A stretch of DNA of 35,855 nt. Origin: an uncultured Agathobaculum sp. Its GTDB lineage: Bacteria; Bacillota; Clostridia; Oscillospirales; Butyricicoccaceae. Below, piece by piece: positions 767-23,207 of this stretch. Below the pieces are notes generated by a model, which was not told the DNA's origin, did not search any database, and saw nothing but the letters and a program-made list of their open reading frames with translations. Location of the stretch: positions 1-35,855 of the forward strand of contig NZ_CALWUQ010000016.1 in the NCBI RefSeq assembly GCF_944384695.1, given 5' to 3'. A program made the position numbers and the translations under genes. The first letter of the stretch is position 1. Each line of letters begins with the position of its first letter.

Positions 767-1969
767 ATGCAAAAGGGAGAAGCGGCAAAGCTCAAGCTGT
801 TGCTCAGCGGCATTTGTGCGCGACTGACCAAAAACCGGGATTTTTTTGTGCAGGCGGTCGGCGTATTTACTTCGGGGAAGAAAAAGTTTGAGGCGAAACT
901 CACGCGCGACGGTGAGGATTACCGCCTGCGCTTTCAGGGCGCGGAACGCACGGTGGATGCCGACGGATTCTGCGCGTTTTTTGCCGAACAGGCGGAGAAA
1001 TTTGACGAAGCGGTACTGACTTACACCGAGCGCGGTTCGGTGGTGACGCTTTCGGTGACGCCGCGCGGCGTGCAGATGAAGCAGGCCGAACGGCAGGCAA
1101 CGGCGGAAGAGAAAGCGGCGGCCGCCAACCCCTTGCTTGACCCGGCACGGCAGTATCTGATTCGCGTGGATCGCGCGGCGGCGCTGCTGCGCGAAATCGG
1201 CATCCTGACCGCGGATGGCAAGCTGAAAAATGACATGATCCGCAAGTACAACCAGATTGACCATTATGTAGAGTTGGTTGCGCCCATGTTCGAGCAGGAT
1301 GACAGCGAGGAAATCGTGCTGCTCGACTGCGCCTGCGGCAAGTCCTACCTCAGCTTTGTGATGAACTATTATCTGCATGAGGTGCTGCGCCGCCGCTGTC
1401 GCGTGATTGGCGTGGACATCAACGAGCATGTCATCGACGAGAGCCGCGCAATGGCCAAGCGGCTGGGGTATCATAATATGGTGTTTCAGTGCGCCGATTT
1501 ACGCACCTATCAGCCGCCCAAGGGCGTGACGGCCGTGATATCGCTGCACGCCTGCGATATTGCGACGGATTTGGCGCTGGCGACGGCGATTCGCGCCCGC
1601 GCGAAGTATATCGCGTGCGTACCCTGCTGCCACAAGGAGCTGCTCGACCAGTACACGCTGCCGGGACTCGAGCCGCTGACCAAATTCGGCGTGTTCAAGG
1701 CGCGGTTCAACGACGTGCTGACCGACAGCATGCGCGCGCTCAAACTGGAAGCGGAAGGATATAAGGTATCGGTGGTGGAGTACATCTCGCCGCTCGATAC
1801 GCCGAAAAATCTGCTCATCCGCGCGGTGCGCACCGGACGGGATAATCCGCGCGCCCGCAAGGAATACGACGCAGTGCGGCAGGTGGTCGGGACGACCTCG
1901 GAGCTGGATAGGCGCTGCGCCGAAATGGATGCGGAGTTCTTTGTCACGGACGAAGATTTGATTTTGTAA
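767..1969 (+). CDS. Class I SAM-dependent methyltransferase, Methyltransf_32 type
   Basis: A 400-residue protein. The C-terminal half carries a Rossmann methyltransferase: SAM-binding motif I LLDCACGKSYLSF near residues 184-196, the acidic end of strand 2 in VIGVDIN, then CADL and a PCCHKEL motif near 285. That PCCH motif is typical of the Methyltransf_32 group (GSTCD-like proteins), thought to act on RNA or other large substrates. The N-terminal 130 residues are basic and without recognisable motifs, and might bind the substrate. The gene stands alone between hairpins with its own likely promoter. The ribosome binding site is weak (AAGG about 12 bases upstream). The substrate is unknown. Confidence 0.8.
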   Translation: MQKGEAAKLKLLLSGICARLTKNRDFFVQAVGVFTSGKKKFEAKLTRDGEDYRLRFQGAERTVDADGFCAFFAEQAEKFDEAVLTYTERGSVVTLSVTPRGVQMKQAERQATAEEKAAAANPLLDPARQYLIRVDRAAALLREIGILTADGKLKNDMIRKYNQIDHYVELVAPMFEQDDSEEIVLLDCACGKSYLSFVMNYYLHEVLRRRCRVIGVDINEHVIDESRAMAKRLGYHNMVFQCADLRTYQPPKGVTAVISLHACDIATDLALATAIRARAKYIACVPCCHKELLDQYTLPGLEPLTKFGVFKARFNDVLTDSMRALKLEAEGYKVSVVEYISPLDTPKNLLIRAVRTGRDNPRARKEYDAVRQVVGTTSELDRRCAEMDAEFFVTDEDLIL

Positions 1970-2035
1970 CACCAAGATTGCCTCTGAATAAACTGGTAAT
2001 GAAGTCTCTTCAATCAATATTTGGAGGTAATCTAC

Positions 2036-2974
2036 ATGGCTGATAAAGTCTGCTGCCCCGGTCCGATCTGCGGCAGTAATAACAATAACGGCACCGCCGG
2101 CGGTTTCCGCGAGGCGGTCTGCGTTCACACCAAAAAGGTTTATGATTCCTGCCGCAGCAAGGAGTGCTTGCGCGACATCCGCGTGTATCTGTGCCGTGAT
2201 GCACAGGAGCTGCTCAACGCCGGCGGCATCGCTTCGGTCAAACCGCGTGCGGCAGAATTGCTGTGCGTGAAGATCGACGTGGAACACGTTCAGTTTAACC
2301 GTGGCTGCTATACGGTTGACATCCGCTTCTTCTATCGCATCGAGTGCGAGGTCAGCTGCGTGGTTGGCCGTCCGCGCATCATCGACGGTCTGGCCGTATT
2401 TGACAAGCGCGTAGTGCTGTTCGGCGGCGAAGGCGGCGCCCGCATCTTCTCCTCCCGCTATGTGGAGGATGGCATGGACGTTCAGCTGGCACCCGACAGC
2501 AACAAGCCGACCGCTGTGGTCGAAGTGGTTGACCCCATCGTGCTGGATGCGCGCGTGGTTGCGCCTGAGACTTCGTGCAACTGCTGCTGCTGCGCACTGC
2601 ACGAGGTACCGCGCCCGATTTGCTCCTGCTTCGGCGGCGATAATCTGGTGCTGGATAACGACGGCTATCAGCTGTTCGTTACGCTGGGCCAGTTCGCCAT
2701 CATCCGTCTGGAGCGCGATATCCAGCTGCTCATGCCGGCGTATGATATCTGCCTGCCGCGCCGCGATTGCTCGAACAGCGGCGTAGGCGGCGAACAGGAC
2801 CCCTGCGAGATTTTCGCAAACTTTGAATTCCCGATTGACGAATTCTTCCCGCCCAAGCAGGAATGCGGCGAGAATCTGTGCGGCACGCTGAGCGGCGGCT
2901 CGAACGGCTGCGGCTGCGGCAGCGGCAACAGCAATTCGGGTGGCTGCGGCTGCGGCGGTAAGTGCGGCGGCTGA
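2036..2974 (+). CDS. Cys-rich conserved hypothetical protein, possibly spore-associated
   Basis: 312 residues with about 30 cysteines, in clusters such as VCCPGPIC at the N terminus, CNCCCCALHE in the middle, and a C-terminal Gly-Cys-Ser tail of repeated GCGC/GGCGCGG units. The start is ATG 2036, since GGAGGT (2023-2028) sits 7 bases before it; an in-frame TTG at 2021 overlaps that site and is unlikely. No signal peptide or transmembrane segment is seen. The middle is rich in beta-type sequence (VVLFGG, LFVTLGQFAIIRLERDIQLLMP). Cys-rich proteins of this style occur in spore-forming Clostridia, and a structural, cross-linked or metal-binding role is possible. I do not recognise a named family, so the function is unassigned. 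Confidence 0.75.
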   Translation: MADKVCCPGPICGSNNNNGTAGGFREAVCVHTKKVYDSCRSKECLRDIRVYLCRDAQELLNAGGIASVKPRAAELLCVKIDVEHVQFNRGCYTVDIRFFYRIECEVSCVVGRPRIIDGLAVFDKRVVLFGGEGGARIFSSRYVEDGMDVQLAPDSNKPTAVVEVVDPIVLDARVVAPETSCNCCCCALHEVPRPICSCFGGDNLVLDNDGYQLFVTLGQFAIIRLERDIQLLMPAYDICLPRRDCSNSGVGGEQDPCEIFANFEFPIDEFFPPKQECGENLCGTLSGGSNGCGCGSGNSNSGGCGCGGKCGG

Positions 2975-2998
2975 GCCAAACGGTGACTGCACCAAATG

Positions 2999-3031
2999 AA
3001 AAGGGACGCTCCGAAAGGAGCGCCCCTTTTT
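2999..3031. terminator. Bidirectional terminator between convergent genes
   Basis: The stem AAAAGGG-CGCTCC / GGAGCG-CCCTTTT has one internal A/C mismatch and a GAAA loop. It has T-runs on both sides: TTTTT rightward, and TTTTCATTT read leftward. It serves the Cys-rich gene and the giant leftward gene. Confidence 0.85.
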
Positions 3032-3064
3032 GTGTGTCATGGATTGTACGGCATGCCGAAGCGC

Positions 3065-6000
3065 TTATCGGTACTGACCGCCCATCAGAGCGTCGTATAC
3101 GCCTTGTGCGGTTTCGCTGTCATACTGCCCGATGGCTTGCGTCTGTCCCAATACGGTCAACGTGGCGAGCGCCAGAATCCGCGTCGAGCCCTGCGGATTA
3201 TAGGGACCGGCACAGAACAGAAGCGAACGGACAATGTTCAAACCGACAAAGGAGGCCATCTCTGTGGTATCTTCAAAGCCTCTGGCCTGACGAATCAGCG
3301 ACAGGTCGTCCATCTTCGGCGACACTGTCAAACCGGCCTTCTCCAGCGTTTCACGCAGCTGTGCGCCTTCGTCGCGATGCGCATAATACTGCTGCACGCT
3401 TTTCTTGTCCTGGAACCAGTTACGCAGGAAATTGACCAGCTCTCCGGCTTCTTCAACCACTTTTGCAATCAGTCCGCTCTCGTCTCCCACTGCGTCGCCA
3501 ATCAGACCGCCAACCACACTGCTCATGGTTTGAACTATCTCGTCGATTTGGCGGCTTTCAGCTTTGCTTGCGCCTTGTTTCTGCAGATGTTGGTTGCGGT
3601 TACGGGCGCGGTCGCTGCGCGCTTTCTGCTCTTCGGTCTGGGGCGCGGTCGCGGCCGGTGCAGCCTGCTCTTGGTGTTTGGCACGTTCCGCCTCTTCTTG
3701 GGCGTCATTCAGGTCGCCTATTTTGGAGAGATTTTTTCCGACCGAAATACCCGCATTCAGATATCCCAGATGCGAGCTGGCCGTTTCCAGCTTTTCGCCC
3801 AGCACCGTGGAGGCTTTTTCTCCGATTACGCTGCTGACTTTGTCTTTATAATTTTTATGGAAATCCTTGACTGTGTTGGTGAAGCTCTCGGCGCCGACAC
3901 GCACCTTATCAAAGGACAGGCCGCCGCTCTCTTCGGCCCCCAGCACCCGATTGATGCGGTTGGAAACCTTGGTCGGCAGCAGCATCAGAGCCAAGCGTTT
4001 GGCCGGGCCGGGAATCTGTTCCTCGATGCGGGCACGCACGCGCCGTCCCATGAAGCGGGTGAAGCGGTTGCCGGAATTATGCAGGTTCTGCCGCAGAAAA
4101 CCGCCGTCAAAATGGAACGCACCGGTCAGGCTCAAATCGCCTTCGGAAACATAAAGCTCGCGGTCCTCCAGAAAGATGTTGCGCTCGTTGGTGGTGCGGT
4201 AAACCAATTGCAGCGCACGGCTGACCAGCTTCCAGTCGACCGCGGTTTTACGCTGGGAAAGCGTGTCCGTCGCGTTGACATGGATTCTGCGGTCGGTAAA
4301 GTCAATACTGTCGTCCACCTGAAAGGACAGTGCAGTAAGGATGGCGTTGCGGCAGTCCTCCGCTTTGAGCTGCAAGCCCTTCGTGCCCTGTGCATGGTGC
4401 AGGTGCTCGTCGATGAGCGAGAAACGCGCGCGCGGGTTGACATAATCCCGGCCCTGAATACCGAAGCGGCTGAACAGCGCGTCCTGTTTGGATACGTCCA
4501 GAATGTCGCGCTGCCCCAGCGCCTTGATGAACAGGGTGCGCTGGGATTCGTCCAGATTGAGCCAGCCGGCGTATACAGCCTGCTGGCCGTCGTGCTCCGC
4601 CTGCTCCCGCAGAAATTCATCCACATGCTCCGGCGTATCGAATGTTTTGGGCAGACTGCTTTGCTTTGCGTACTGCGCTTTGACCATTTCGTTGCTGCTT
4701 ACCATGACATTGTCCTTGGCGTTTTTCACAGCGGTCAAGCGCGTTTGCTCGCGTTCCATCTCCTGCAGGAAGTCCATCGCGTGATTCAGCAGCGCCCAGT
4801 CTACCGGGCTTTTGCGGTTGAGATCGACAAAGTCCTCCCGCCGCAGGCGGTGGTTCAGGTCCACATCGTCACGCAGCTGATAGCTGTACAGTGTGTCCAG
4901 CGCGCGCGCAAGGCTTTCGGCCGTAAACTGCGGGCACTGGCTGCTGTCGGCATAGCTGGTGAGCATATCCAGCCGCTTTTCTTCATTGACAACGCCGCGG
5001 ACAGCGCCGCCGCCGACGGCCCACAGGCTGACCCGCTGGGTATAGTCCAACACGGTGCGGTCCTGCAAAATCCAGACGAGCAGATTTTGATGCATGGGGC
5101 TGAGCGCTTCGAGCTTGTCCATCAAAGCGGTGTGGGACTCGCCGCCCTGCTTCTGAAGCACATCGGACAAATCGCGGAAGGTGGTGAGCGATTCGGGCTG
5201 AATCGGTTCGGGTATATTGCTGGTGCGCACACGCCGTGCTTCCGTGCGAGATTCATAGCTGTCTGTCAGACGGTCCAGCGCAAGGGGCTGATTTTCCTGC
5301 CGGCGGCTGATGCAGAGCAGGGTAAAGTCCAGCGCCTGCCGGAACGTGACCGGACCAAAGACACCGTTACTGCTTTTCAGCCGGTTGAGCGCAATGGTAT
5401 AGTTGATTGGCGCCGAAAATTCGCCCGTTTCCACGTAGGTTTGCAGCGCGTTCTGGATGAAGACTTGCCGGCTGCGGTTTGCCTGTTCGCTTTGCAGCAG
5501 TTGATTGCTGGGCAGCGCAAGACCGAACTTGCCGGGCGCTGTCAGCGTCAGGGCAAAGATTTGCCGCTGGTTGATATCCAGTGCGTTGTATTCGTTCAGC
5601 AGGGATTTGTCGGCATGCTCGGCCAGATAGGCTTCAAAGCCCTTACGGTCCACCATGGTGCAGGGGGTGACCTCCGAGCTGGTCAGGCCGTCATAGGAGA
5701 TATTCCCCAGCAGGGAGGAGGAGTCGATGAGATATTGCCGCGAAAGCTCGTCCTTCAGCAGCGTCTGCGCCTGCTCGCGAATCGACTGAATATCCAGCTG
5801 CGCAGTGCCTTCCAGCAAGTCGGCATGGAAGTAGTCGCGCAGACCCATGTACAGCGATTGCCGCTCCTTTTCTTCGTAGGGGGCGAGCAGCTCGGTCCAA
5901 ACGCTTTCCATCTGAATGACGGCGCGCAGATAAGACAGCCGCTTTTCGGCCATCGACTGGAATTCCTCCGGCGGCATGGTATACAGTCCGGCGGCCAGAC

Positions 6001-9000
6001 CGTCAACCACCTGCTGTCGTTCCGCATCCAGTGCAGGATTTTCGATTTCCAGCGCTGTGACTGCTGTAATCAGGCTGCGGGCATTGCGGAAGGTGGACAG
6101 CTGGTTGGGCAGGTCCTGATTGAGCGCACCGTTGCGATGCGTCAACAGGTAGGTCGTGAACGCCTCCGCTTCGGACTCCTCCAGATTTTCGCCAGTTACG
6201 CCCTGTTCGCAAAGGGCAGTCATCAGCGTGGTCAATTCGGTATTGAGTGCGTCCAGCGCTGCGGCATCATCGCGCGCGATGGCGCGCTCAATCAGGCAGC
6301 CCTGCACAAAGGGGGAAGCGGTGGGGTACTGCGTCTTGATGCGCTTTGTGGCGCTCTGAATGCTGCTCGTCAGCGGGTTTTTGATGTCCGTCATCGCCAG
6401 AATCGGCGACGGAATACCACTGAGCTCTTGCAGGCGCGCAGCATCGGTATCGGCCTGCCGGCCTGCGGCCTTCCGCTGCTCGATTTGCGTCATGACGGAT
6501 GCACGCTGGCTCATGATTTGCTTGCTCCGCTGCACATTGTCCGTCTCATCTGCGTCCAGCTGTTGATACTGCCGGAAGAGCCGGTCCAAATCGCCGGCAA
6601 ACTGATCCGCCGGGGTATAGAACAGCTTGGTGCGCAGATACTGACGAAAGCCCTCCTTCATGCGCGGTTCATGCGGGTGACTGCTCAGGAAGGTGTTGAG
6701 CGCTTCCATATTGGTCAGCAGCGGCTCGGAGTGGTCGGTCAAAAACTGGTCGATTGTTTTGTCGGAATGAAGCAGGAAAGAGGAGCTTACCTCCTGAATC
6801 AAATCATACAGATACGGCGCCATGGCTTTACGGATACCCTTTTTGGCGGTCAAGATTTTGTGGAGGTTGTCATCAATGGACGGCTGTCCTGCCTTATGCT
6901 CGGTGATTTGTCCGTAAAGTGTGTAAAATTCCTGCTCCCACGGCCAATCGTTGGGCTTTAAGGTGGAGAGCTTCTGCCAGCATTCCTCCACTATCTGGCC
7001 GATGAGGAAGGGGTCGTTAAAGTATCTTTCCTTCAGATGGCGCAGCGGCGCTTCGTATTGCGCCAACAGCGTCTGTGTCAGCTGCTCCATATCCACATTG
7101 CTGCCGGTGGATAGGGTGGTCCAGACGTCTGGCTGCTGCATCAGGCGGTCCACAATGGGCAGGAGCACCCCATCGCCTGCGGTGCGCAGTTCATGGATAC
7201 GCGCGTCGATTGCTTGGGAAAGTGCCTGTGCCTGCGTCAGTTGCTCCGGCTTGGCAAGGAGCGCGTCCAGCTTTTTCATGGTGTCCGCCCAGCTGGCGAC
7301 GCCAAAGCGCGTGAGGTTTTCCTCCTGCTCCTGCTCGTCCAGTCTGACAATCATCTGACGGAAGTTATCGGTCAGTTGCTGCACCTGTTCGGCAGGCAGA
7401 TTGGCCGCTTGCAGCTTTTGCGCCAGCTCGTTCCGGTGCGCTTGGATTCTTCTGTCCATAGTGCGCAGCTTTTTCTGGTAAGCGTCGCGCCCATCGTGGG
7501 TGAGGGAGCGAGCCATGTCCGATGTGGACAGAATGGCATCCTCATAGCCGGATACCAGCATTTCGTGCTCGCACGCCGCCTTGGTGATGCGGTCCCAATA
7601 GACGCGGAGCGGGTCTCTCGAAGAAGGCTCCACGAGGTCATGGTGGTACACTTGCTGCCGAATCAGATGGAGGGCCTTGCTATCCAAACTGTCTTTCCGC
7701 AGTTCGTCCAAAAGCTGTCCGGCTTGCTGGAATCGCTCGATACGACGTCCCGGACGGTTGCCCTTGGTGAAGAAATGTCCGCCACGGTGCGCATCCAGAT
7801 AGCGGTACTGCACCTGTCCCATCTCGGCATTTTCTTGGCCGACCTGTGTCAGGAACCGAAGCTCTACAGAAGTGGTTTCCTGTATCAGACGGTTTTGTAT
7901 CTGCTCGGCCGTTTGGCTGAAGTTTTCTGCTGTGGTGTCCCCCTTCAGGATGCCGGGCAGCATGCGGATGAGAATCTGCCGCGTCTGCGGGAAGGAAAGC
8001 TTGCTCCATGGCTCGGCTACCTGCGCCAAGGTGTTGCGCCATTGGAGGATGAGCGCGGCACTTTCGCTGCGGGGCAGGTTGTCCAAATCGTGCAGGCTGC
8101 GGACCGGCCCAAAGGTTTGCTGCGACAGAAGCTGGTCGAGCGCTTGGAGGATTTGTTCGGAATAGCTGTCATACATCCCGCCGAAGCCCGACCAGCGGCA
8201 AAGGGCTTCGCCTTCCAGCTGCTGCCGGATGATGCCTTTCTGTGTGTGCTGGGTAGGCTGCAGGAAATCGCCCTTTGCGCCATACAGGGCATGAGCGCGG
8301 TCTACGTGGGTTTCCGGAGCGCCGCGCTCCAGCGTTTTCAGCTTGTTGTCCAGAGCGGTTTGAAAAGCATCGGCCTCTTGGTCGAGTTGCTCCATAGCCC
8401 ATGCGTCCAGCTCCCGCCACGCCGCCGGACACATGGCAAGCTCAGCTTGCTGCGCGTCCAGCAGGTTCAGATTGTTGTCGATGCGATTTTTCAGTCCTGC
8501 AAGCGCGGCTTTCATTTTGTCCAGCGTATCTGCCTGCGCCTGCACAACCCGGCGGTCGGCCAGCTTGCCCCAGCGGTTTTCCAATCCGGCTTGGCGCATG
8601 GCGACCCGGAAGACGGCCTCAACACTGGCGGCTTCCGGCACGGATGCCTGTAAATTGCGCAGATACTGGTATACCGTGGCGGAAATCGCGCCGGGGGAAC
8701 CGGTCAGAAGCAGATAGCTTTCCTTTTCGAGCAGCTTGTTCATCACAATCTCACGGCTGGCGGTGGACAGGGAATCCTCGAGGATTTTCTGCACGTCAGC
8801 AAGGTTTTCCTCCGCCTGCTGGGACAAATGCGCAACCTGCTGCTGGAAGAGCGCATCGTCGCTTGGCGTGTGCAGGATGTTCTGTATCAGCCAGCTGTCC
8901 ATTGCGCCTTGCAACAGCTTGAGCTTGGGATGGTTGCGCAGGACCTCCAGTCTATCATGATACAGTTTGATATGCTCGGTCTGGCTTTCCAGTGCAGCGG

Positions 9001-10150
9001 TAATGGCCTGCTCCAATTCCTGAGACTGTTCTTCCAGATTATCGGTGAGCAAGCGTGTGCCGAGATTGGTCGTCAGGGTCTGTGCTACCGACTCACGGAG
9101 CATCTGCAACGCCGGTTCGCGGGTCTGGTAGGCGTCCAGTGCGCGCTCCAGAGCGGGCAGATTGCGCTCCAGCGCTTCATGCAGCCGTTCTACCGAAGCG
9201 GCAAATTGCTGCCACGGTTGCTGCATGTTTTCCGGACCGAGCACCTGCTCGGCTAACTCGGCATAAGGGCCGAGCAGCCATTTTTGCGGGATGCTGCCAT
9301 CAGCAGAAGCACCCGTGCGCAGATATGCCTGCTTGGCAAGCAGGTTTTCGGGGCGTTCCCTGTTTTGTTGTTCGGCTTGGCTTTGCTTGGCCACGTACTG
9401 GTCCCATTGCTGCTGGAAGGCCTGACTGCAGCATAGTTTGCTTGCTGCCATACCGGAGGAGGACGCGACGCCGTACAGTTTGGCAAAAACCGCCTGATTG
9501 ACCTGTTCGGGCGGCAGCTGCTCGACCATATGCTCAAGCGCGACGGAGACACAGTGATACAGCAGTACAAAACGGCTTTGTACGTCAAGCCCCGCCATTT
9601 CGTCCAGATAGCGGTGACTGGGTGCGGTGGCACCTAAGTTAAGCGACTGGTAGACTTTCACCAAGTCGGATAACTGTGTTTCGTCCATGGTGGAGGGGGT
9701 GTAGCTCTGCAGCTGTGTTAGCAGATGGGACAGCGTGGTAAATGCAGGCGTTTGCTCCTGTGTGGTCAGTTGGTCCAGCGACAGGGGGTCGCCTACTGTC
9801 TGCGTCAATGTCTGTGCGTAAACCTGTGTGGAGGCATCCTCTTCGACGGCTTTGAGCGCTTGCAGCATGCTGTCCTGCATCTGTTGGCCGGGCTGATAAA
9901 AGGCCTGTGCCGCCTGCGGAGATAGCGCTGCGTCAAGCGCCTTTTGCTTGGCCTGTAACTTCCGGCGTTCGTTCTTGCTCAGTTTTTTGATATTCCGCTG
10001 CGCCTCTTGCAGTTCCACCCCGGTGGTGGCGCGCAGATGCGCTGCCATTTGTGGAGAAACGGGAGCGAACTGCTGCATTTCCTGCTGGACAGTCTGTGTG
10101 GTTTCGATGTGCTGTTGCTGCTGTCGGTTCACCTGAAGTGTTTTACCCAT
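3065..10150 (-). CDS. Giant (2361 aa) repeat-containing protein of unknown function
   Basis: One intact frame of 2361 codons, about 265 kDa, Gln-, Leu- and Glu-rich and mostly predicted helical. There is no signal peptide, so it is probably cytoplasmic unless exported by a leaderless route. The first 130 residues are Gln-rich (MGKTLQVNRQQQQHIE) with a basic helix KNERRKLQAKQKAL. Between about residues 1516 and 1992 there are three degenerate repeats: each opens with a pattern like L..(D/S)..QR.LF...L..R.(I/V)LD and closes with (V/F)DW.L...A...L. A flexible Ala/Pro/Glu linker (near 2190) precedes a hydrophobic, Gly-rich C-terminal domain. The start overlaps the stop of the upstream GNAT gene by 8 bases; AAAGGA lies 11 bases before it. 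I recognise no family. A structural scaffold, a phage-defence protein and a secretion-system cargo are all possible and none is shown. Confidence 0.85.
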   Translation of the reverse strand: MGKTLQVNRQQQQHIETTQTVQQEMQQFAPVSPQMAAHLRATTGVELQEAQRNIKKLSKNERRKLQAKQKALDAALSPQAAQAFYQPGQQMQDSMLQALKAVEEDASTQVYAQTLTQTVGDPLSLDQLTTQEQTPAFTTLSHLLTQLQSYTPSTMDETQLSDLVKVYQSLNLGATAPSHRYLDEMAGLDVQSRFVLLYHCVSVALEHMVEQLPPEQVNQAVFAKLYGVASSSGMAASKLCCSQAFQQQWDQYVAKQSQAEQQNRERPENLLAKQAYLRTGASADGSIPQKWLLGPYAELAEQVLGPENMQQPWQQFAASVERLHEALERNLPALERALDAYQTREPALQMLRESVAQTLTTNLGTRLLTDNLEEQSQELEQAITAALESQTEHIKLYHDRLEVLRNHPKLKLLQGAMDSWLIQNILHTPSDDALFQQQVAHLSQQAEENLADVQKILEDSLSTASREIVMNKLLEKESYLLLTGSPGAISATVYQYLRNLQASVPEAASVEAVFRVAMRQAGLENRWGKLADRRVVQAQADTLDKMKAALAGLKNRIDNNLNLLDAQQAELAMCPAAWRELDAWAMEQLDQEADAFQTALDNKLKTLERGAPETHVDRAHALYGAKGDFLQPTQHTQKGIIRQQLEGEALCRWSGFGGMYDSYSEQILQALDQLLSQQTFGPVRSLHDLDNLPRSESAALILQWRNTLAQVAEPWSKLSFPQTRQILIRMLPGILKGDTTAENFSQTAEQIQNRLIQETTSVELRFLTQVGQENAEMGQVQYRYLDAHRGGHFFTKGNRPGRRIERFQQAGQLLDELRKDSLDSKALHLIRQQVYHHDLVEPSSRDPLRVYWDRITKAACEHEMLVSGYEDAILSTSDMARSLTHDGRDAYQKKLRTMDRRIQAHRNELAQKLQAANLPAEQVQQLTDNFRQMIVRLDEQEQEENLTRFGVASWADTMKKLDALLAKPEQLTQAQALSQAIDARIHELRTAGDGVLLPIVDRLMQQPDVWTTLSTGSNVDMEQLTQTLLAQYEAPLRHLKERYFNDPFLIGQIVEECWQKLSTLKPNDWPWEQEFYTLYGQITEHKAGQPSIDDNLHKILTAKKGIRKAMAPYLYDLIQEVSSSFLLHSDKTIDQFLTDHSEPLLTNMEALNTFLSSHPHEPRMKEGFRQYLRTKLFYTPADQFAGDLDRLFRQYQQLDADETDNVQRSKQIMSQRASVMTQIEQRKAAGRQADTDAARLQELSGIPSPILAMTDIKNPLTSSIQSATKRIKTQYPTASPFVQGCLIERAIARDDAAALDALNTELTTLMTALCEQGVTGENLEESEAEAFTTYLLTHRNGALNQDLPNQLSTFRNARSLITAVTALEIENPALDAERQQVVDGLAAGLYTMPPEEFQSMAEKRLSYLRAVIQMESVWTELLAPYEEKERQSLYMGLRDYFHADLLEGTAQLDIQSIREQAQTLLKDELSRQYLIDSSSLLGNISYDGLTSSEVTPCTMVDRKGFEAYLAEHADKSLLNEYNALDINQRQIFALTLTAPGKFGLALPSNQLLQSEQANRSRQVFIQNALQTYVETGEFSAPINYTIALNRLKSSNGVFGPVTFRQALDFTLLCISRRQENQPLALDRLTDSYESRTEARRVRTSNIPEPIQPESLTTFRDLSDVLQKQGGESHTALMDKLEALSPMHQNLLVWILQDRTVLDYTQRVSLWAVGGGAVRGVVNEEKRLDMLTSYADSSQCPQFTAESLARALDTLYSYQLRDDVDLNHRLRREDFVDLNRKSPVDWALLNHAMDFLQEMEREQTRLTAVKNAKDNVMVSSNEMVKAQYAKQSSLPKTFDTPEHVDEFLREQAEHDGQQAVYAGWLNLDESQRTLFIKALGQRDILDVSKQDALFSRFGIQGRDYVNPRARFSLIDEHLHHAQGTKGLQLKAEDCRNAILTALSFQVDDSIDFTDRRIHVNATDTLSQRKTAVDWKLVSRALQLVYRTTNERNIFLEDRELYVSEGDLSLTGAFHFDGGFLRQNLHNSGNRFTRFMGRRVRARIEEQIPGPAKRLALMLLPTKVSNRINRVLGAEESGGLSFDKVRVGAESFTNTVKDFHKNYKDKVSSVIGEKASTVLGEKLETASSHLGYLNAGISVGKNLSKIGDLNDAQEEAERAKHQEQAAPAATAPQTEEQKARSDRARNRNQHLQKQGASKAESRQIDEIVQTMSSVVGGLIGDAVGDESGLIAKVVEEAGELVNFLRNWFQDKKSVQQYYAHRDEGAQLRETLEKAGLTVSPKMDDLSLIRQARGFEDTTEMASFVGLNIVRSLLFCAGPYNPQGSTRILALATLTVLGQTQAIGQYDSETAQGVYDALMGGQYR

Positions 10151-11009
10151 GGTTCGTGCCGTCCTTTCTGTAAAATCCCTGCTGGAGCTGTCCCTGACAG
10201 AGCAGGGTGCGTTCGCCGCGCTGTTGCAGCAGGCGGTGGGCGAGACGGTCGGCGGACTCCTCCACGCAGTCGAACGAAAGCTCGGTCAGGCCGTTATCCA
10301 GCATGGCCTGTGCGGTGCAGCGCACAAGCGCAAGCCCGCCGGTCACGCAGCCTCCCCGGATGCTGAACAAATTCAGATAGAAAACGCTGGGCGCGGTGTT
10401 CTGCACCAGAGTCAGGCCGGCGGGACGGTCATGGATGAACAGGACATGGCTGGTCTCCGGATCGGCAGCGGCGTAGTCTGCCCGGCTGGCCTGATAATTG
10501 CCCTCCTGTTCATACTGCGCGCGGATTTCATTCCGCTGCGCCGTAGAAAGGGCGGACAGGGAAAGGATGCTGCCGCGCCAGTCAACATTGGCGCTGGGGG
10601 ACAAAAAAGGCGCGGATTCCAGCTCTTCCCGGGTCAAATGAAAGCGCTGCACCGCAAGGGCCTTGCTTAAAAAGCCCTCTCGGGATAGTATCAGCTCCAT
10701 TGCCGGCGCCCAATCGGCATCAAATGGATAGCTGATGGTGATGTTGGAAATAGGGCGGCGCATCTTTTCAAAAATGCGCACACATGCCTGATGAAGAAGC
10801 GCTTGGCCCACGCCACGCCGACGATAGTCCGGCGCTACCCAGAACCAGCAGATGCTGGCGCGGGTCCCCATGATATTCAGGGCAATCACGCCGCAGCCGA
10901 CGTCATCCCAGCTGGCGCCCAGCACAGCGGTGGAACGCGGGGAAAAGCCGTCCGGCAGCAGGGGGGAAAAGGCGGGGAGAAGCTCCTCGGTAACAGAAAA
11001 AATCTGCAT
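10143..11009 (-). CDS. GNAT family N-acetyltransferase (two GNAT halves)
   Basis: 288 residues. The N-terminal half has the acetyl-CoA binding motif A in WFWVAPDYRRRGVGQALL (near residues 55-72). The C-terminal half, after a central hydrophilic stretch, has weaker GNAT features (YLNLFSIRGG, then ALVRCTAQAMLDNGL), suggesting a tandem or degenerate double GNAT. The start is MQIFSVTEE at 11009, preceded by GGAGGT with 5-base spacing; the upstream in-frame extension has no ribosome binding site. The gene overlaps the start of the giant gene by 8 bases, so the two are translationally coupled. The acceptor could be the giant protein itself, which is inference from linkage only. Confidence 0.8.
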   Translation of the reverse strand: MQIFSVTEELLPAFSPLLPDGFSPRSTAVLGASWDDVGCGVIALNIMGTRASICWFWVAPDYRRRGVGQALLHQACVRIFEKMRRPISNITISYPFDADWAPAMELILSREGFLSKALAVQRFHLTREELESAPFLSPSANVDWRGSILSLSALSTAQRNEIRAQYEQEGNYQASRADYAAADPETSHVLFIHDRPAGLTLVQNTAPSVFYLNLFSIRGGCVTGGLALVRCTAQAMLDNGLTELSFDCVEESADRLAHRLLQQRGERTLLCQGQLQQGFYRKDGTNHG

Positions 11010-11299: not shown

Positions 11300-11863
11300 A
11301 TGCAGGAAGAAAAAAGCCCTGTCTATACCATTATTTTGGGCGTGTGTATGCTGCTGTGTCTGCTGATGATAGGCAGGATGCTGCTCGGCCATCCGGAGCA
11401 AGAGGTTTCACCGGAAGTGGGCCATCCGACTTTACCGGAGCAGGAGGAGACTGGAATGCAATTGCGGGAATCGTATTTGTGTGGGTTGATTGAGCAGGCA
11501 TTGCCGATACCGGTGCGCGAAATCACGGCGCAGATAGGCGCGGATGAAACGATTTCCGTTGTGGTATTGGTGCGCAGACAGGATTTGCAGGAAAGCGGAC
11601 TGGTGCCGGGCGGACTGCGTACCGCGCTGCTGTTCCTGCCGGAGGAATGTCGCATGTACGGTGCGTGGACGGCTTCTGTGGCGGAAGGGAAGGTTGCGCT
11701 GCAATGTGAAAGCGCGGAAATCGGCGGGGTGGCGGTACCGGCAGAGCTGGTCACAGAGCTGACCGAGCAGGTTGCCGCTGCTATCAACGAATATTTGGAA
11801 AAAGCAGGCATGACGCCACAAAAACTGGAATGGACGGACGGTGCACTACAGTTGACGGCATAA
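11300..11863 (+). CDS. Membrane-anchored protein of unknown function
   Basis: 187 residues. One N-terminal transmembrane helix (about residues 9-29, YTIILGVCMLLCLLMIGRMLL) is followed by an acidic linker and an extracytoplasmic domain of about 140 residues with the pattern ISVVVLVRRQDL and a final helix VAAAINEYLEKAG. The layout (anchor plus a lipid- or sugar-binding-like alpha/beta domain) recalls YpmS/DUF2140-type proteins, but I cannot confirm membership. GGAAGGGGG lies upstream with a somewhat long spacing. It converges on the NlpC/P60 gene across a shared hairpin, and a cell-envelope role fits that neighbourhood. Confidence 0.7.
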   Translation: MQEEKSPVYTIILGVCMLLCLLMIGRMLLGHPEQEVSPEVGHPTLPEQEETGMQLRESYLCGLIEQALPIPVREITAQIGADETISVVVLVRRQDLQESGLVPGGLRTALLFLPEECRMYGAWTASVAEGKVALQCESAEIGGVAVPAELVTELTEQVAAAINEYLEKAGMTPQKLEWTDGALQLTA

Positions 11864-14855: not shown

Positions 14856-14905
14856 TGCGGCTTTTCGCGCTCTTGTTTTTTGTAATCGTACCAGAATCGT
14901 ACTGT
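14805..14905. other. Putative attL region of the prophage
   Basis: The host/phage junction should lie between the intact head of the small ORF and the integrase stop. Within it, AATCGTAC is directly repeated (14884-14891 and 14895-14902, separated by CAG), a candidate integrase binding site. The exact core cannot be fixed without attR. Confidence 0.4.
14835..14882. terminator. Hairpin terminator at the left prophage end
   Basis: AGCGCGAAA-GGCC pairs with GGC-TTTTCGCGCT. The T-run TTGTTTTTT follows rightward, and TTTTTGC follows leftward after the integrase gene. It overlaps the last codons of the small truncated ORF. Confidence 0.75.
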
Positions 14906-15957
14906 CAGGCGAGTGCGCTCAGCTTTGCGGCGACATCGGCCTGCTTGTTTGGGTACAGGTGGGAGTAGATGCGGAGAGTCGTGTCTACGCTGTCATGACC
15001 CAGCCGCTCGGCGATCAGGAGCGGCGAGAAGCCCAACTCGATCAGCATGGAGGCATGGCTATGCCGAAGATCGTGGACGCGGATACGCGGCACTCCTGCA
15101 CGTTCTGCGGCCTTGCCCAGCGAGGTCGAGACATTGCTGGGGGAGCGGCGGAACAGCAGATCGGTACGGGCGGGCTGGTAGAGCCGTTTGATGTATGTCT
15201 GCAGTTCGGCGCAAAGCTGGTCGGGTATGGTCACGGTACGCACGCTGTTTTCCGTCTTGGGCGGCGTGATGACATCCCGACCGCCGCGCCGGTCGCGGGT
15301 TTTGGTGATCGAAATGGTTTTGGAGGTGAAATCAACGTCTTCGATTGTCAGCGCAAGGCATTCACCGCGACGCATGCCGGTCCAGAACAGAATTTGATAG
15401 ATGGCGTGCAGTTCGGGATCCGTAACACATTCAATGACCTGCCGGTACTGGTCAACCGTCCAGAACTGCATGACTTTTGCGTCACGCTTGCCGATGCGGG
15501 GCTCGTTATGGCATGGATTACGGTCGAGGCCATAATACTTCTCTGCAAAATTAAATACAGCAGCAAGATCGTTGTTGATCGTCCGCAGATAGGTGGGGCT
15601 GTATTCAGTTTGCATCATTGCCGTCTGCCACTCGTGAATCATTAGCGGCGTGATCGAACTGACCGGAAGATCACCGAACGTCGGCAGGATCTTGTCGCGG
15701 AAAATATGCTGCTTTTTGCGGATCGTGCTGTCGCGCAGGCGGACAGCGCTGGACTGCATGTACTGTTCGTATAATGCCTGAAACGTCATGCTGCAGCTGC
15801 CGCTGTGCTGCTTAACGAAATTGTCCTCGAAGGCTTTTGCTTCCCGTCGGGTGGCAAAGCCTTCTTTCTTTTTACGGTGCGTGGTGCCAAAGCTGTCCTT
15901 GAAGTAGAAGGACGCGTACCAGCGACCACTGCCGTCGGTCATTTTGTGTACCGCCAT
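14905..15957 (-). CDS. int: Phage tyrosine integrase
   Basis: 350 residues. An N-terminal arm-binding domain (GRWYASFYFKDSFG, with RREAKAFE) is followed by a SAM-like core-binding domain (about residues 55-155) and the catalytic domain. Catalytic residues are visible: Arg in TGMRRGE near 195, HxxR in HDLRHSHAS near 294, LGH near 320 and the nucleophile Tyr in RIYSHLY near 330. The enzyme integrates and excises the phage at its attachment site next to its own 3' end. ATG 15957 has GGGAGGG 7 bases upstream; nine extra in-frame codons upstream overlap that site. The gene points outward toward the host junction. Confidence 0.95.
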   Translation of the reverse strand: MAVHKMTDGSGRWYASFYFKDSFGTTHRKKKEGFATRREAKAFEDNFVKQHSGSCSMTFQALYEQYMQSSAVRLRDSTIRKKQHIFRDKILPTFGDLPVSSITPLMIHEWQTAMMQTEYSPTYLRTINNDLAAVFNFAEKYYGLDRNPCHNEPRIGKRDAKVMQFWTVDQYRQVIECVTDPELHAIYQILFWTGMRRGECLALTIEDVDFTSKTISITKTRDRRGGRDVITPPKTENSVRTVTIPDQLCAELQTYIKRLYQPARTDLLFRRSPSNVSTSLGKAAERAGVPRIRVHDLRHSHASMLIELGFSPLLIAERLGHDSVDTTLRIYSHLYPNKQADVAAKLSALA

Positions 15958-15973
15958 TTGGTATCCCTCCCAT

Positions 15974-16002
15974 TTACAACACACAAAAATATATGCTATA
16001 AT
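15974..16002 (+). promoter_or_regulatory. Rightward promoter between integrase and the ImmA-like gene
   Basis: TTACAA (15974-15979) and TATAAT (15997-16002) are 17 bases apart, with TG one base before the -10. A transcript would begin near 16009 and meet the terminator at 16042-16078. Confidence 0.65.
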
Positions 16003-16005
16003 GAA

Positions 16006-16078
16006 AGGGCAGAATCCCGCTCAAAGTTTTCTGCCCTTGATCCCGCCCTGGTGCTCCAACACCGGGGCGGGGTTTTTA
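16006..16078 (+). ncRNA. Candidate small RNA or attenuator leader of two hairpins
   Basis: Just downstream of a good promoter is a 9-bp stem AGGGCAGAA/TTCTGCCCT (16006-16014 with 16029-16037). A terminator hairpin CCCGCCCTGGTG/CACCGGGGCGGG (16042-16071) with GTTTTTATT follows at once. The roughly 70-base transcript contains no ORF. It could be a free small RNA or a leader controlling read-through into the ImmA-like gene. On the opposite strand the same hairpins would fold in the integrase mRNA leader. Confidence 0.5.
16042..16078 (+). terminator. Intrinsic terminator before the ImmA-like gene
   Basis: A 12-bp GC-rich stem with one T-G wobble and a CTCCAA loop, followed by GTTTTTATT. Confidence 0.8.
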
Positions 16079-16101
16079 TTGTAACAGCCGCATTATGTCA
16101 A
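16073..16101 (-). promoter_or_regulatory. Candidate integrase promoter
   Basis: Read leftward, TTGACA (16096-16101) and TAAAAA (16073-16078) are 17 bases apart. The -10 falls on the T-run of the rightward terminator. The resulting integrase leader would be about 110 bases and structured. Confidence 0.45.
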
Positions 16102-16110
16102 GGCTATAAT
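16082..16110 (+). promoter_or_regulatory. Second rightward promoter for the ImmA-like gene
   Basis: A perfect TATAAT (16105-16110) lies 17 bases after TAACAG (16082-16087), downstream of the terminator. It could express the protease independently of the leader. Confidence 0.4.
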
Positions 16111-16177
16111 TACCAACATTTACTTGCAGACAAAACGCACAATGCATCTCTACAATTTTTTGTGGAGGTGTTTATTT

Positions 16178-16813
16178 GTGAGCTACAAAGACTATCAAAA
16201 CGCGAGAAATGCGTCGTGGAAAATCCTTTTGGATTGTGATATAGACCGTTTGCCGGTCGATCTGAATGTAATCCGCGATCTGATCGGTGTTCGCATAGTA
16301 TCATACAAGGATGCAAAAGCGCTCATACAAAAAAGAAATCTAAGTGCGCTCACTGTACAGACGGACGGCCTTACGTTTTATGCTGGAGCAGAGCCGGTCA
16401 TCCTGTACAGTGAAGTATGTTCACCGGAAAGAATCCGCTTTACGATTGCGCATGAGCTGGGACATATTGTACTCGGGCATGTTGCGCCGGGAAATATCAC
16501 GACAAAAAACCGTGAGCCTTTCCCGGGAGATAGCCCGCAGGAGACTGCGGCCAATCAATTTGCCGCCCGCTTACTGGCACCTGCCTGCGTATTGTGGGGG
16601 CTTGATCTACATACAGCAGATGAAATTGCGGAGGCGTGTCGCATTTCAAAGCAAGCCGCGCAATTCCGATCGGAAAGAATGAAAACCCTGTATGCCAGAA
16701 ATAAGTTTTTATCGTCGCCGTTAGAACGCAAACTATATCAGCGATTCATGCCGTTTATGGAAGCGGTGTGTTGTCGGGAAGTTCGTCCAGGTGAATCTCT
16801 TCAATCTGACTGA
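16178..16813 (+). CDS. ImmA/IrrE-family metallopeptidase
   Basis: 211 residues. The zinc-protease motif HELGH lies near residues 92-96, with the third ligand likely the Glu in ETAANQFAARLL near 125. Family members such as ImmA of ICEBs1 cut the cognate repressor to induce the element. GTG 16178 is chosen because GGAGGT lies 8 bases before it and the family start MSYKDYQNAR follows; the upstream in-frame ATG has no such site. It faces the repressor gene tail-to-tail and the two overlap by 59 bases, unlike the usual repressor-protease operon. The target is presumably the adjacent CI-like protein. Confidence 0.88.
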   Translation: MSYKDYQNARNASWKILLDCDIDRLPVDLNVIRDLIGVRIVSYKDAKALIQKRNLSALTVQTDGLTFYAGAEPVILYSEVCSPERIRFTIAHELGHIVLGHVAPGNITTKNREPFPGDSPQETAANQFAARLLAPACVLWGLDLHTADEIAEACRISKQAAQFRSERMKTLYARNKFLSSPLERKLYQRFMPFMEAVCCREVRPGESLQSD

Positions 16814-17207
16814 CGGCGCCGCTACGAGCTGCCGCCATGACCATCGGGCGGGGCGAATCTACTTGCTCAGCGCAACGCTTATGTTCTATATTTAAAATCG
16901 AATCCACAGCTGCTTTACCGTACTCGTCGAGAGTGCGGTATTTTTTTATGTGCTCACATTCTTCAGATGTCAAGGAGTGCAGAAGTGAATTTTCGAAGTT
17001 TGAACCAACATATCCGGTTTCTAAAAGGATGTCACCTGATGTATTAAGAATTTTTGCCAACTGTTTTATTTTTTCGACATCAGGTTGGCGCTTTCCTGTT
17101 TCGTAACCACAGTATGTGCTATTAGTTATACCCATTGCATCCGCTACTTGTTGTTGTGTCATTCCGGATGATAAACGAGCGGATTTAAGTTGTTCTGCGA
17201 ATGCCAT
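16755..17207 (-). CDS. CI-like repressor, XRE helix-turn-helix
   Basis: 150 residues. An N-terminal XRE domain (about residues 5-60) contains the helix-turn-helix MTQQQVADAMGITNSTYCGYE. A variable helical middle and a short acidic tail follow; the C terminus has AAARSG and then IEEIHLDELPD. There is no LexA-type peptidase domain, consistent with inactivation by a separate ImmA-like protease. GAGGTGAG precedes the ATG. It would hold the lysogenic state by binding the TTGGCG operators upstream. The last 59 bases overlap the convergent protease gene. Confidence 0.88.
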   Translation of the reverse strand: MAFAEQLKSARLSSGMTQQQVADAMGITNSTYCGYETGKRQPDVEKIKQLAKILNTSGDILLETGYVGSNFENSLLHSLTSEECEHIKKYRTLDEYGKAAVDSILNIEHKRCAEQVDSPRPMVMAAARSGAVSQIEEIHLDELPDNTPLP

Positions 17208-17232
17208 ATATTCTCACCTCATTTTCATAATT

Positions 17233-17261
17233 AACATAGCACGAACTTGGCGATACGTCAA
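17233..17261 (-). promoter_or_regulatory. Leftward promoter for the repressor
   Basis: Read leftward, TTGACG (17256-17261) and TATGTT (17233-17238) are 17 bases apart. Operator 1 covers the spacer and the -35, so the repressor probably regulates itself. Confidence 0.6.
17247..17261. promoter_or_regulatory. Operator 1 (TTGGCGATACGTCAA)
   Basis: A near-palindrome matching TTGGCG-N3-CGCCAA at 11 of 12 arm positions. It overlaps the leftward promoter. Confidence 0.7.
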
Positions 17262-17279
17262 TATTTTTTAAAAAATCTA

Positions 17280-17308
17280 TTGACATATTGGCGTAATGCT
17301 GATAACAT
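17280..17308 (+). promoter_or_regulatory. Rightward early promoter
   Basis: TTGACA (17280-17285) is followed after 17 bases by TAACAT (17303-17308), with TG at the extended -10 position. A perfect TATAAT at 17308-17313 is at an unfavourable 22-base spacing. Operator 2 lies in the spacer. Confidence 0.6.
17288..17302. promoter_or_regulatory. Operator 2 (TTGGCGTAATGCTGA)
   Basis: One intact TTGGCG half-site with a degenerate second half, between the -35 and -10 of the rightward promoter. It is probably the weaker site. Confidence 0.55.
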
Positions 17309-17319
17309 ATAATCACAAA

Positions 17320-17334
17320 TTGGCGTTACGCCAA
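17320..17334. promoter_or_regulatory. Operator 3, perfect palindrome TTGGCGTTACGCCAA
   Basis: A perfect 7-1-7 palindrome just downstream of the rightward promoter and 15 bases before the Cro-like start. It is the best copy of the three and likely the strongest binding site. Confidence 0.75.
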
Positions 17335-17349
17335 GAAAGGGGTGAAAAT

Positions 17350-17550
17350 ATGTACCCTAATCTGTTGGGGCAGAAAGCATATCACCATCTGACGGATGAG
17401 GATATGGCCAAAGTTATTGGCGTTTCTCGAAATGCCTATTCCGCAAAAATTAAAAGCGGGAGATTTACTCCACAAGAATGTGCTTTATATTGCAAGTATT
17501 TTAGGAAGCAATTTGAGTACCTATTCGCAACCGACGAAGAAATTGGATAA
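17350..17550 (+). CDS. Cro-like helix-turn-helix protein
   Basis: 66 residues. A helix-turn-helix of the XRE/Cro type is visible (LTDEDMAKVIGVSRNAYSAK, about residues 15-34), followed by a short helix QECALYCKYFRKQFEYLF. It is the first gene from the rightward promoter and sits right behind the perfect operator, the position of Cro. AAGGGGTG lies just before ATG 17350, and in-frame upstream codons would run through the operators. It probably competes with the repressor for the TTGGCG sites. Confidence 0.8.
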   Translation: MYPNLLGQKAYHHLTDEDMAKVIGVSRNAYSAKIKSGRFTPQECALYCKYFRKQFEYLFATDEEIG

Positions 17551-17564
17551 GGAGGGAAAATAAG

Positions 17565-17717
17565 GTGCAACTGCAAATTGCGATATTTATTTCTGGATTT
17601 GTCGTAGGCCTTGGAGTATATAGGCTGATCATAGCGCTCTTCATGGGTGAGTGGCCTGATACAAGATGCACCTTTTGCAAGTATTTTCTGGAAAAAGAAA
17701 GCCGCCACAAAAAGTGA
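17565..17717 (+). CDS. Small membrane protein with CxxC
   Basis: 50 residues starting at GTG 17565, with AAGGAGG 9 bases upstream. One hydrophobic segment (IAIFISGFVVGLGVYRLIIALF) is followed by a soluble tail with CTFCKYF. It sits 14 bases after the Cro-like gene and is likely co-transcribed. It resembles small accessory proteins of clostridial phages; the function is unknown. Confidence 0.55.
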   Translation: MQLQIAIFISGFVVGLGVYRLIIALFMGEWPDTRCTFCKYFLEKESRHKK

Positions 17718-17720
17718 CGG
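17701..17720 (-). terminator. Hairpin terminator for the leftward two-gene unit
   Basis: GCCGCCAC/GTGACGGC with one mismatch and an AAAAA loop. Read leftward it is followed by TTTCTTTTTCC. It overlaps the 3' end of the rightward CxxC gene. Confidence 0.55.
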
Positions 17721-17728
17721 CGAAAAAA

Positions 17729-17875
17729 CTACTTGCTATTTGATTTAGGTTGCGGTTGAGTTGTAGCCGAAGCAGGCTTCTGAGGTGCGGGAATTTTGAA
17801 GGACGGAGGAGGTACTGAATTTTTTTGAATATCTGAGCTTTGACCGTAGGTTGTGCGTTTAGAATTATTAGTCAT
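17729..17875 (-). CDS. Short proline-rich peptide
   Basis: 48 residues, hydrophilic, rich in Pro, Ser, Gln and Lys (PPPSFKIPAPQKP in the middle), probably disordered. The ATG at 17875 lies inside the last codons of the upstream membrane-protein gene (8-base overlap), so translation is coupled. Codon use is AT-richer than the host genes. It has no recognisable family. Such a tail could be a partner or regulator of the membrane protein, which is inference from coupling. Confidence 0.55.
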   Translation of the reverse strand: MTNNSKRTTYGQSSDIQKNSVPPPSFKIPAPQKPASATTQPQPKSNSK

Positions 17876-18383
17876 TATCGTTCACTTCCTTTACATCATA
17901 ATAGAGATTGAAGTAGTTTTTGCATTCTTGTTCGGCATTTTTAGAGCAGATACGGCTGGGGGGTAAATAAATATCGCCAACGTATGTATTTTCCAATTCG
18001 TTTAGCATTTTGCGATATTGAGTTAGAAGGGCTGTAATTTCGCTCTCTGAGTATTTTTCTGAATCTATTCTTGCCCAATCCTCCTCAATACCAATAAGCA
18101 TTTTGCTTATTGCTGGGATTATAAATTTGAATGCGATAAGCTGTTTCGATTGGGGGTATAAAGGTTTTGTTACACTAAATATTTGTGATACAGCTAAAAT
18201 GATCGCCCAAACGACTGGATACTGAGCCCAGATGCCCCATGCAGCAATAGATGATGCTGAAGATAACAGACAAACAGTATCTATTATGCCAATAATTCTT
18301 TTTGAATTTAGTTGATAATGCCAATAGTATCGTTCTTTATATTTCATTTCAACGAACATTGTCCAAAACTTCTCGCGCATCAT
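17868..18383 (-). CDS. Two-helix membrane protein, SLATT-like
   Basis: About 171 residues. An N-terminal amphipathic stretch (EKFWTMFVEMKYKERYYWHY) precedes two close transmembrane helices (about residues 30-52, IIGIIDTVCLLSSASSIAAW, and 57-77, VVWAIILAVSQIF), then a long soluble helical tail. This order matches SLATT-type two-helix proteins, which occur as effectors in nucleotide-signalling defence systems; membership is not proven. The start is one of two adjacent ATGs (18383 or 18380); a GTG at 18389 is also possible. It is transcribed against the early genes from its own promoter, as expected of a gene active in the lysogen. Confidence 0.65.
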   Translation of the reverse strand: MMREKFWTMFVEMKYKERYYWHYQLNSKRIIGIIDTVCLLSSASSIAAWGIWAQYPVVWAIILAVSQIFSVTKPLYPQSKQLIAFKFIIPAISKMLIGIEEDWARIDSEKYSESEITALLTQYRKMLNELENTYVGDIYLPPSRICSKNAEQECKNYFNLYYDVKEVNDND

Positions 18384-18397
18384 ATTCACCTAATGAA

Positions 18398-18426
18398 ATT
18401 TTATCATGATTTTATGTGAAAGGCAA
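18398..18426 (-). promoter_or_regulatory. Promoter of the leftward membrane-protein unit
   Basis: Read leftward, TTGCCT (18421-18426) and TAAAAT (18398-18403) are 17 bases apart, about 15 bases before the start codons. No TTGGCG operator is nearby, so the unit is probably on in lysogens. Confidence 0.6.
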
Positions 18427-18465
18427 TCGTGACGGTAGAAAAAACAGGAAGAAGGTGAAATAAGA

Positions 18466-18642
18466 TTGACTGAACTAAGCAAAAAGCTCATCCGTTTTGC
18501 AGTGGACGAGCTTCGAGACGAAACCAAAGGCGTACTGTTAGTTCAAGGCGTCATAGGTGCACTGGAGGACGCAGCCAAGGATTTGGAACGTTTTGTACTC
18601 CGATTGCCTATTGAGGATCATTTAACGACGTTGGAATCGTAA
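18466..18642 (+). CDS. Small helical phage protein
   Basis: 58 residues from TTG 18466, with GAAGGTG upstream. The sequence (MTELSKKLIRFAVDELRDE, then GVIGALEDAAKDLERFVLRLP) reads as two amphipathic helices and a short tail. It has no transmembrane segment and no known family. It is the first gene of the rightward early group after the leftward unit. Confidence 0.45.
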   Translation: MTELSKKLIRFAVDELRDETKGVLLVQGVIGALEDAAKDLERFVLRLPIEDHLTTLES

Positions 18643-18688
18643 TGTGTTTTGTCCCTGATAATGGCAATGAGGAGAGGTCAGAAAAGCA

Positions 18689-18901: not shown

Positions 18902-19007
18902 TACTGTGCAGTTATTGGTAAGCTCCTAAGCCCACAGCATCACAAAACGTACAAGCGCACAGACAAGCTAAGACCGCATACCATGAAATGAGAAAGGCGG
19001 TGATGAA

Positions 19008-19172: not shown

Positions 19173-19186
19173 AGAGGAAGTGAAAA

Positions 19187-19903: not shown

Positions 19904-19907
19904 AAAG

Positions 19908-19937
19908 CCGCCTCGGAACGGCAATTCCGAAAGCGGC
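19908..19937. other. Inverted repeat before the Rad50-like operon
   Basis: GCCGC and CGGAA on one side pair with TTCCG and GCGGC on the other. There is no T-run, so it is a weak terminator or a structured operon leader. Confidence 0.35.
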
Positions 19938-23202: not shown

Positions 23203-23207
23203 ACAAC

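What the first reader, a model, noticed from the sequence alone, without database searches (positions are those of the whole stretch)
3065..10150. A 2361-residue intact protein of unknown function with three internal repeats
The frame is uninterrupted over 7.1 kb in a normal host region. Three degenerate units (nucleotides about 5605-5270, 5118-4738 and 4565-4170) share an opening L..(D/S)..QR.LF...L..R..LD and a closing DW.L...A..., separated by about 160-190 residues. A fourth, weaker copy may precede them (WTELLAPYEEKERQSLYMGL). No signal peptide or enzyme motif is visible. Cells rarely keep a protein this large without strong use.
Basis: partly seen in the sequence, partly recalled or inferred. 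Interest (0 to 1): 0.7.

Follow-up and report, generated by a model that had tools for sequence, protein, structure and literature searches.

The report
Giant cargo protein with acetyltransferase partner
A gut Agathobaculum carries, as a two-gene insertion, a 2361-residue protein paired with an acetyltransferase-like protein; relatives of this pair accompany one kind of phage-tail-like injection machine, so the giant protein is most likely cargo that the machine carries out of the cell.

Summary
The ORF is real and intact. Two internal repeats are solid (residues 1676-1805 and 1859-1991); the third is at most a weak partial copy and the fourth is not supported. The protein matches no family, but it is not an orphan: a genome from another order of the class encodes a 2447-aa homologue with both repeats. 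In both genomes a gene of one two-domain GNAT family lies directly upstream. In the window genus this GNAT+giant pair is a clean insertion between conserved neighbours. More than 30 further GNAT loci pair with other large proteins (a calpain-like protease, kinase-like proteins, one beside an ADP-ribosyltransferase); in the window genus nearly all begin with a glutamine-rich leader. GNAT genomes carry contractile-injection-system tubes far more often than expected (8 of 12 against 20 of 394, p=4e-9). The window genome and the homologue's genome carry the same subtype (sheath 64%, tube 68% identical). In two distant CIS loci a GNAT sits beside a Pvc15-like loader ATPase. Best reading: a giant cargo (effector) of that injection system, with the GNAT as loading or modifying partner. 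The activities of cargo and GNAT remain inferred; AlphaFold failed (pLDDT about 39).

The parts
3065..10150 (-). Giant protein, 2361 aa: proposed cargo of a contractile injection system
   Evidence: ORF and codon pattern; homologue of 2447 aa with the same upstream partner
9929..10150 (-). N-terminal leader: glutamine-rich hydrophilic residues 1-50, then a basic block 51-74 (QRNIKKLSKNERRKLQAKQKALDA); proposed loading signal
   Evidence: Q fraction of first 80 aa 0.20; the 13 highest of 334 ORFs are all GNAT-adjacent proteins; basic block in top 1.5% of background
4736..5125 (-). Internal repeat A, residues 1676-1805
   Evidence: conserved in the G653 homologue
4178..4576 (-). Internal repeat B, residues 1859-1991
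   Evidence: conserved in the G653 homologue
3086..3733 (-). Conserved C-terminal segment, residues 2140-2355
   Evidence: 27% identical to the G653 homologue; BLASTP E 4e-18 over 2079-2355
10143..11009 (-). Two-domain GNAT-family partner, 288 aa, AcCoA motif RRRGVG kept; overlaps the start of the giant gene by 8 bases
   Evidence: Pfam PF00583 E 1.4e-8; family alignments A1/A2; overlap and AAAGGA upstream of the ATG
3000..3031 (.). GC-rich hairpin with T run after the conserved gene 2033-2974, present also in the empty site; marks the left edge of the insertion
   Evidence: comparison with L041; by eye

Best explanation
The 2361-residue protein is cargo (an effector) of the contractile injection system (CIS) encoded on contig C25 of the same genome. 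Its N terminus, a hydrophilic glutamine-rich leader followed by a basic block, acts as the loading signal, and the AAA+ ATPase that such systems use as loader threads it into the tube lumen. The GNAT made from the overlapping upstream gene is a dedicated partner that binds the cargo before loading, as chaperone or adaptor, or acetylates it, perhaps in the lysine-rich block. The large helical body with two 130-residue repeats and the conserved C-terminal segment acts in the target cell. Shown by sequence: the pair, its insertion, the leader composition, the GNAT family and its partners, the homologous pair with the same CIS, and the co-occurrence. Inferred: loading, the role of the GNAT, and any effector activity.
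For: (1) The only homologue found (2447 aa) also has a GNAT-family gene directly upstream (hmm E 3e-10), and its contig carries a CIS whose sheath, tube and Pvc16 are 64, 68 and 69% identical to those of the window genome. (2) The window genome has that CIS: Pvc16_N, sheath, tube, spike, Tail_P2_I. (3) GNAT family against CIS tube: 8 of 12 against 20 of 394 genomes, p 4e-9, 5e-8 without the own genome; all six genomes with this tube subtype have the GNAT. (4) GNAT partners include a calpain-like protease (E 2e-20), a weak PI3/PI4-kinase match and, in one CIS locus, a neighbouring ADP-ribosyltransferase (E 9e-12). (5) In a search by kinase-like body alone, 31 of 35 loci not cut at the 5' end have the GNAT adjacent. 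(6) GNATs lie next to eCIS_core proteins and next to AAA+ ATPases with a winged-helix match in two distant loci. (7) CIS cargo leaders are hydrophilic and disordered without a conserved sequence (PMC11297309), and Pvc15 loads cargo by its leader (PMC11495950).
Against: The cassette is not linked to the CIS in the window genome (contigs C16 and C25). G003 and G163 carry GNAT cassettes with no sheath found, and G022, G023 and G257 only with sheaths of other lengths. The leader has no aromatic residue in its first eight positions, one of the published features. The homologue's leader is not Q-rich. No catalytic motif is seen in the body, and structure models failed. The co-occurrence test does not correct for phylogeny.
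Confidence: 0.64

Rival explanations
1. The giant protein is a secreted effector, but it leaves by another route, and the link to the CIS is only shared ecology of gut clostridia.
For: Several cassette genomes lack a detectable matching CIS (G003, G163; other sheaths only in G022, G023, G257); only two of the 40 kinase-type loci show CIS genes within the fetched flanks.
Against: Same-contig linkage to a CIS tube in G013, G161, G288, G079, G083, G216 and, for the homologue, to a CIS in G653; GNAT next to eCIS_core and loader ATPases; same CIS subtype in both genomes with the giant.
Confidence: 0.18
2. The GNAT is an immunity or antitoxin protein for the giant, not a loading partner: the pair is a toxin-antitoxin or polymorphic toxin unit.
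For: Adjacent overlapping genes, toxin-like partners, sporadic distribution.
Against: One GNAT family accompanies unrelated bodies and also eCIS_core proteins and loader ATPases, where there is no toxin to neutralise; immunity proteins normally match one toxin (inference).
Confidence: 0.1
3. Structural or tape-measure-like protein of a tail or CIS, given its length and helical content.
For: Length; all-helical though low-confidence models; CIS effectors related to tape-measure proteins have been reported (abstract of PMC13277306).
Against: Not in a structural operon, no phage family match, comes as a cassette like the enzyme-bearing partners, absent from most CIS genomes.
Confidence: 0.04

Closest known systems
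Effectors of the Photorhabdus virulence cassette and antifeeding prophage (eCIS cargo loaded by leader and Pvc15)
   Same: CIS in the genome, hydrophilic N-terminal leader, very large cargo possible (Afp18 of Yersinia ruckeri has at least 2123 residues, PMC4518317)
   Different: Cargo gene unlinked to the CIS here; leader Q-rich; a GNAT partner on nearly every cassette, for which a text search of the held library found no CIS paper
eCIS_core (DUF4157, PF13699) proteins, proposed as cargo chaperones in cis or trans (PMC11297309)
   Same: Found next to the same GNAT family inside CIS loci (L051, L143)
   Different: The giant protein has no DUF4157 match; here the partner is a GNAT
Toxin-activating acyltransferases (HlyC type, GNAT-like fold; from general knowledge)
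   Same: Acyltransferase-type gene directly upstream of a very large toxin-like gene
   Different: These GNATs have two domains, mostly a standard AcCoA motif (55 of 66), and pair with many unrelated bodies

Membership tests
eCIS cargo (effector) | Genome encodes a contractile injection system | tested here: met
   Pvc16_N, sheath, tube, spike, Tail_P2_I on contig C25
eCIS cargo (effector) | Hydrophilic, disordered N-terminal leader | tested here: met
   Mean hydropathy of first 50 aa -0.75, lowest 6% of background; Q-rich. Disorder itself not computed
eCIS cargo (effector) | Aromatic residues in the first eight positions and positive charge at 6-21 | tested here: not met
   None aromatic, net charge 0; a statistical feature of known cargo (PMC11297309), not a strict requirement
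eCIS cargo (effector) | Gene linked to the CIS locus (usual, not strict) | tested here: not met
   Different contigs in the window genome; same contig but about 400 kb apart for the homologue; within about 40 kb for six other GNAT loci
eCIS cargo (effector) | Loaded into and delivered by particles | not testable with these tools
   Needs purified particles
GNAT superfamily (upstream partner) | GNAT domain with AcCoA motif [RQK]xxGx[GA] | tested here: met
   PF00583 E 1.4e-8; RRRGVG
DUF4157/eCIS_core protein | PF13699 domain | tested here: not met
   No match in the giant protein

The most novel reading that the evidence does not exclude
A two-domain GNAT family is a general cargo partner of a clostridial injection system: it works with the Pvc15-like loader and prepares many unrelated, leader-bearing cargoes, among them giants of about 2400 residues, for loading.
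Probability: 0.4. Interest if true: 0.8.

Novelty: new variant of a known kind. Interest (0 to 1): 0.62.

Why it matters
Surveys of injection systems report them as depleted in human-associated microbes and, in the human gut, as almost only from Bacteroidota (PMC8213781; PMC12210884). A CIS subtype in Oscillospirales and in a relative from another order of the class, with a mobile set of partnered cargoes, would add a large, untested group. The GNAT marker makes the cargo findable by genome search, and it poses a testable question: does GNAT binding or acetylation control cargo loading?

Tried and rejected
tblastn of the giant in 87 family and 394 order genomes, phages, plasmids, viral contigs and species genomes found nothing; only the class sample gave the homologue. 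AlphaFold2 without alignment on residues 1640-2361 and 600-1010 gave pLDDT 39 and 38 and was not used for fold search. Weak matches of the giant (Sigma70_ner, Treslin_M, LmuB) lie below cut-off or lack support and were discarded. ORFs 1499-3040 and 686-1474 on the minus strand were rejected as genes: they are shadows of 2033-2974 and 767-1969 on the plus strand, which have congener orthologues; an operon idea based on them was dropped. A YbjN-like domain at the C terminus of the L050 GNAT was suspected by eye but not confirmed by Pfam; a stand-alone YbjN gene before the L090 GNAT was confirmed.

Full report
What is there. The window is contig C16 of a 1.97-Mb, 123-contig genome, 97.5% complete. 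Contigs of two congeners match records named Candidatus Agathobaculum merdavium and uncultured Agathobaculum, so the genus is Agathobaculum in GTDB terms. The minus-strand ORF 3065-10150 encodes 2361 residues without interruption. Its codon-position GC fits the true genes of the window; the 1321-aa ORF on the other strand is a shadow. No profile library or solved structure matches it credibly.

Repeats. Residues 1676-1805 and 1859-1991 are clearly related (score 108, z 13.4, 0 of 500 shuffles). The unit at about 1516-1628 scores z 2.7 and is not picked up by a profile; at most its opening LD..QR..F motif resembles the others. A fourth copy is not supported.

An accessory pair. The gene directly upstream, 10143-11009 minus, is a 288-aa protein with a GNAT domain; the two genes overlap by 8 bases, with AAAGGA ahead of the giant's ATG. 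The conserved neighbours on both sides (2033-2974 and 11300-11863) lie directly side by side in six congeners (L041, L043, L044, L046, L047, L048) without this pair. In L041 the terminator on the left and the sequence just before 11300 on the right are retained, so the insertion is clean. No relative of the giant was found in the 24 other genomes of the genus, the 86 others of the family or the 393 others of the order sample.

A GNAT family with variable large partners. Relatives of the GNAT in congeners sit next to large proteins that differ in their bodies but share a glutamine-rich N terminus. In 334 ORFs picked from 33 regions, the 13 highest N-terminal glutamine fractions (0.19-0.375) are exactly the GNAT-adjacent proteins, the giant among them; all others are at or below 0.15. 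The leader is followed by a basic block in most of them. One GNAT neighbour, in L087, is not Q-rich. The partner bodies fall into several unrelated groups: a calpain-type protease (PF00648, E 2e-20), kinase-like proteins (one weak PI3/PI4-kinase match), a protein with a GHSRGA motif seen by eye, and others without a match. In a termite-gut genome the pair lies beside a protein with an ADP-ribosyltransferase domain (E 9e-12). The pattern extends to other families of the order. A search by kinase-like body alone, which used neither the GNAT nor the leader, returned 40 named loci in Oscillospirales and Lachnospirales and a few other clostridial groups; 31 of the 35 not cut at the 5' end have the GNAT directly adjacent. 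In the Lachnospiraceae loci the leaders are less Q-rich.

Link to a contractile injection system. Members of the GNAT family also sit directly beside eCIS_core proteins in CIS loci (L051, L086 and L089 by position and sequence resemblance; PF13699 confirmed for L051 and L143). The window genome has a CIS on contig C25 with Pvc16_N, sheath, tube, spike and Tail_P2_I. In the order sample the GNAT is found in 12 genomes (14 with two partial matches) and the tube in 20 of 394; 8 genomes have both, where 0.6 are expected (p 4e-9; 5e-8 without the window genome), and all six genomes with this tube subtype have the GNAT. In the family sample the overlap is 7 of 10 (p 1.7e-4). Relatedness of the genomes is not corrected for.

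The homologue. A sample of 371 genomes of the class gave one true homologue: 2447 aa in genome G653, BLASTP E 2e-46 over residues 1519-2127 and 4e-18 over 2079-2355, with both repeats; the N-terminal halves are barely alike. A GNAT-family gene lies directly upstream (hmm E 3e-10), too divergent for Pfam and without a recognisable AcCoA motif by eye. About 400 kb away on the same contig is a complete CIS, with sheath 64%, tube 68% and Pvc16 69% identical to those of the window genome. At the end of that CIS locus another GNAT of the family follows about 14 bases after an AAA+ ATPase with a winged-helix match. In L143 the same neighbour pair occurs: winged-helix AAA+ ATPase, GNAT, then two proteins of which the one tested is eCIS_core. 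Pvc15, the AAA+ ATPase of the Photorhabdus system, is needed to load cargo through its leader (PMC11495950).

Interpretation. The simplest account of all this is cargo plus partner. The leader fits published descriptions of CIS cargo leaders (hydrophilic, no conserved sequence; PMC11297309), except for the aromatic residues and the positive charge. Size is no obstacle: Afp18 of Yersinia ruckeri has at least 2123 residues (PMC4518317). Because the GNAT accompanies unrelated bodies and the loader, its role is probably general, binding or modifying cargo, and not immunity. Most GNATs keep the AcCoA motif (55 of 66), so acetylation is possible; 11, and the homologue's own partner, do not, so binding alone may suffice. 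Loading, acetylation and the activity of the giant are not shown.

Weak points. The pair and the CIS are on different contigs here. Five cassette genomes lack a matching sheath. The body has no known motif, and models failed.

Noticed in passing
window 14905-33330: Prophage-like region: tyrosine integrase downstream of MtaB (14905-15984 -), phage-type genes, DNA methylases (25856-28381, 28290-30194), tRNA-Gly at 33253. A 71%-identical integrase follows MtaB in L048.
   Followed up: partly
window 2996-6961: 1321-aa open frame antisense to the giant gene, with mirror codon-position GC: a shadow ORF, not a gene.
   Followed up: yes
L038 2493-4094, L039 6525-8231, L050 6618-8258, L036 1-948: Serine-recombinase-like genes near several GNAT cassettes, judged by eye; they may explain how the cassettes move.
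   Followed up: no
L085 6614-8564: A cassette in G022 whose Q-rich partner looks broken into two frames, beside an intact GNAT.
   Followed up: no
L090 8360-8854: YbjN-family gene (PF10722) directly before a GNAT and its kinase-like partner; possibly a second chaperone.
   Followed up: partly
window 2033-2974: Conserved genus protein with a Gly/Cys/Asn-rich tail, no Pfam match.
   Followed up: no
L102 46-345 and 2768-3181: STAS-like and anti-sigma-like genes by eye just after the CIS locus of the window genome; possible regulators.
   Followed up: no
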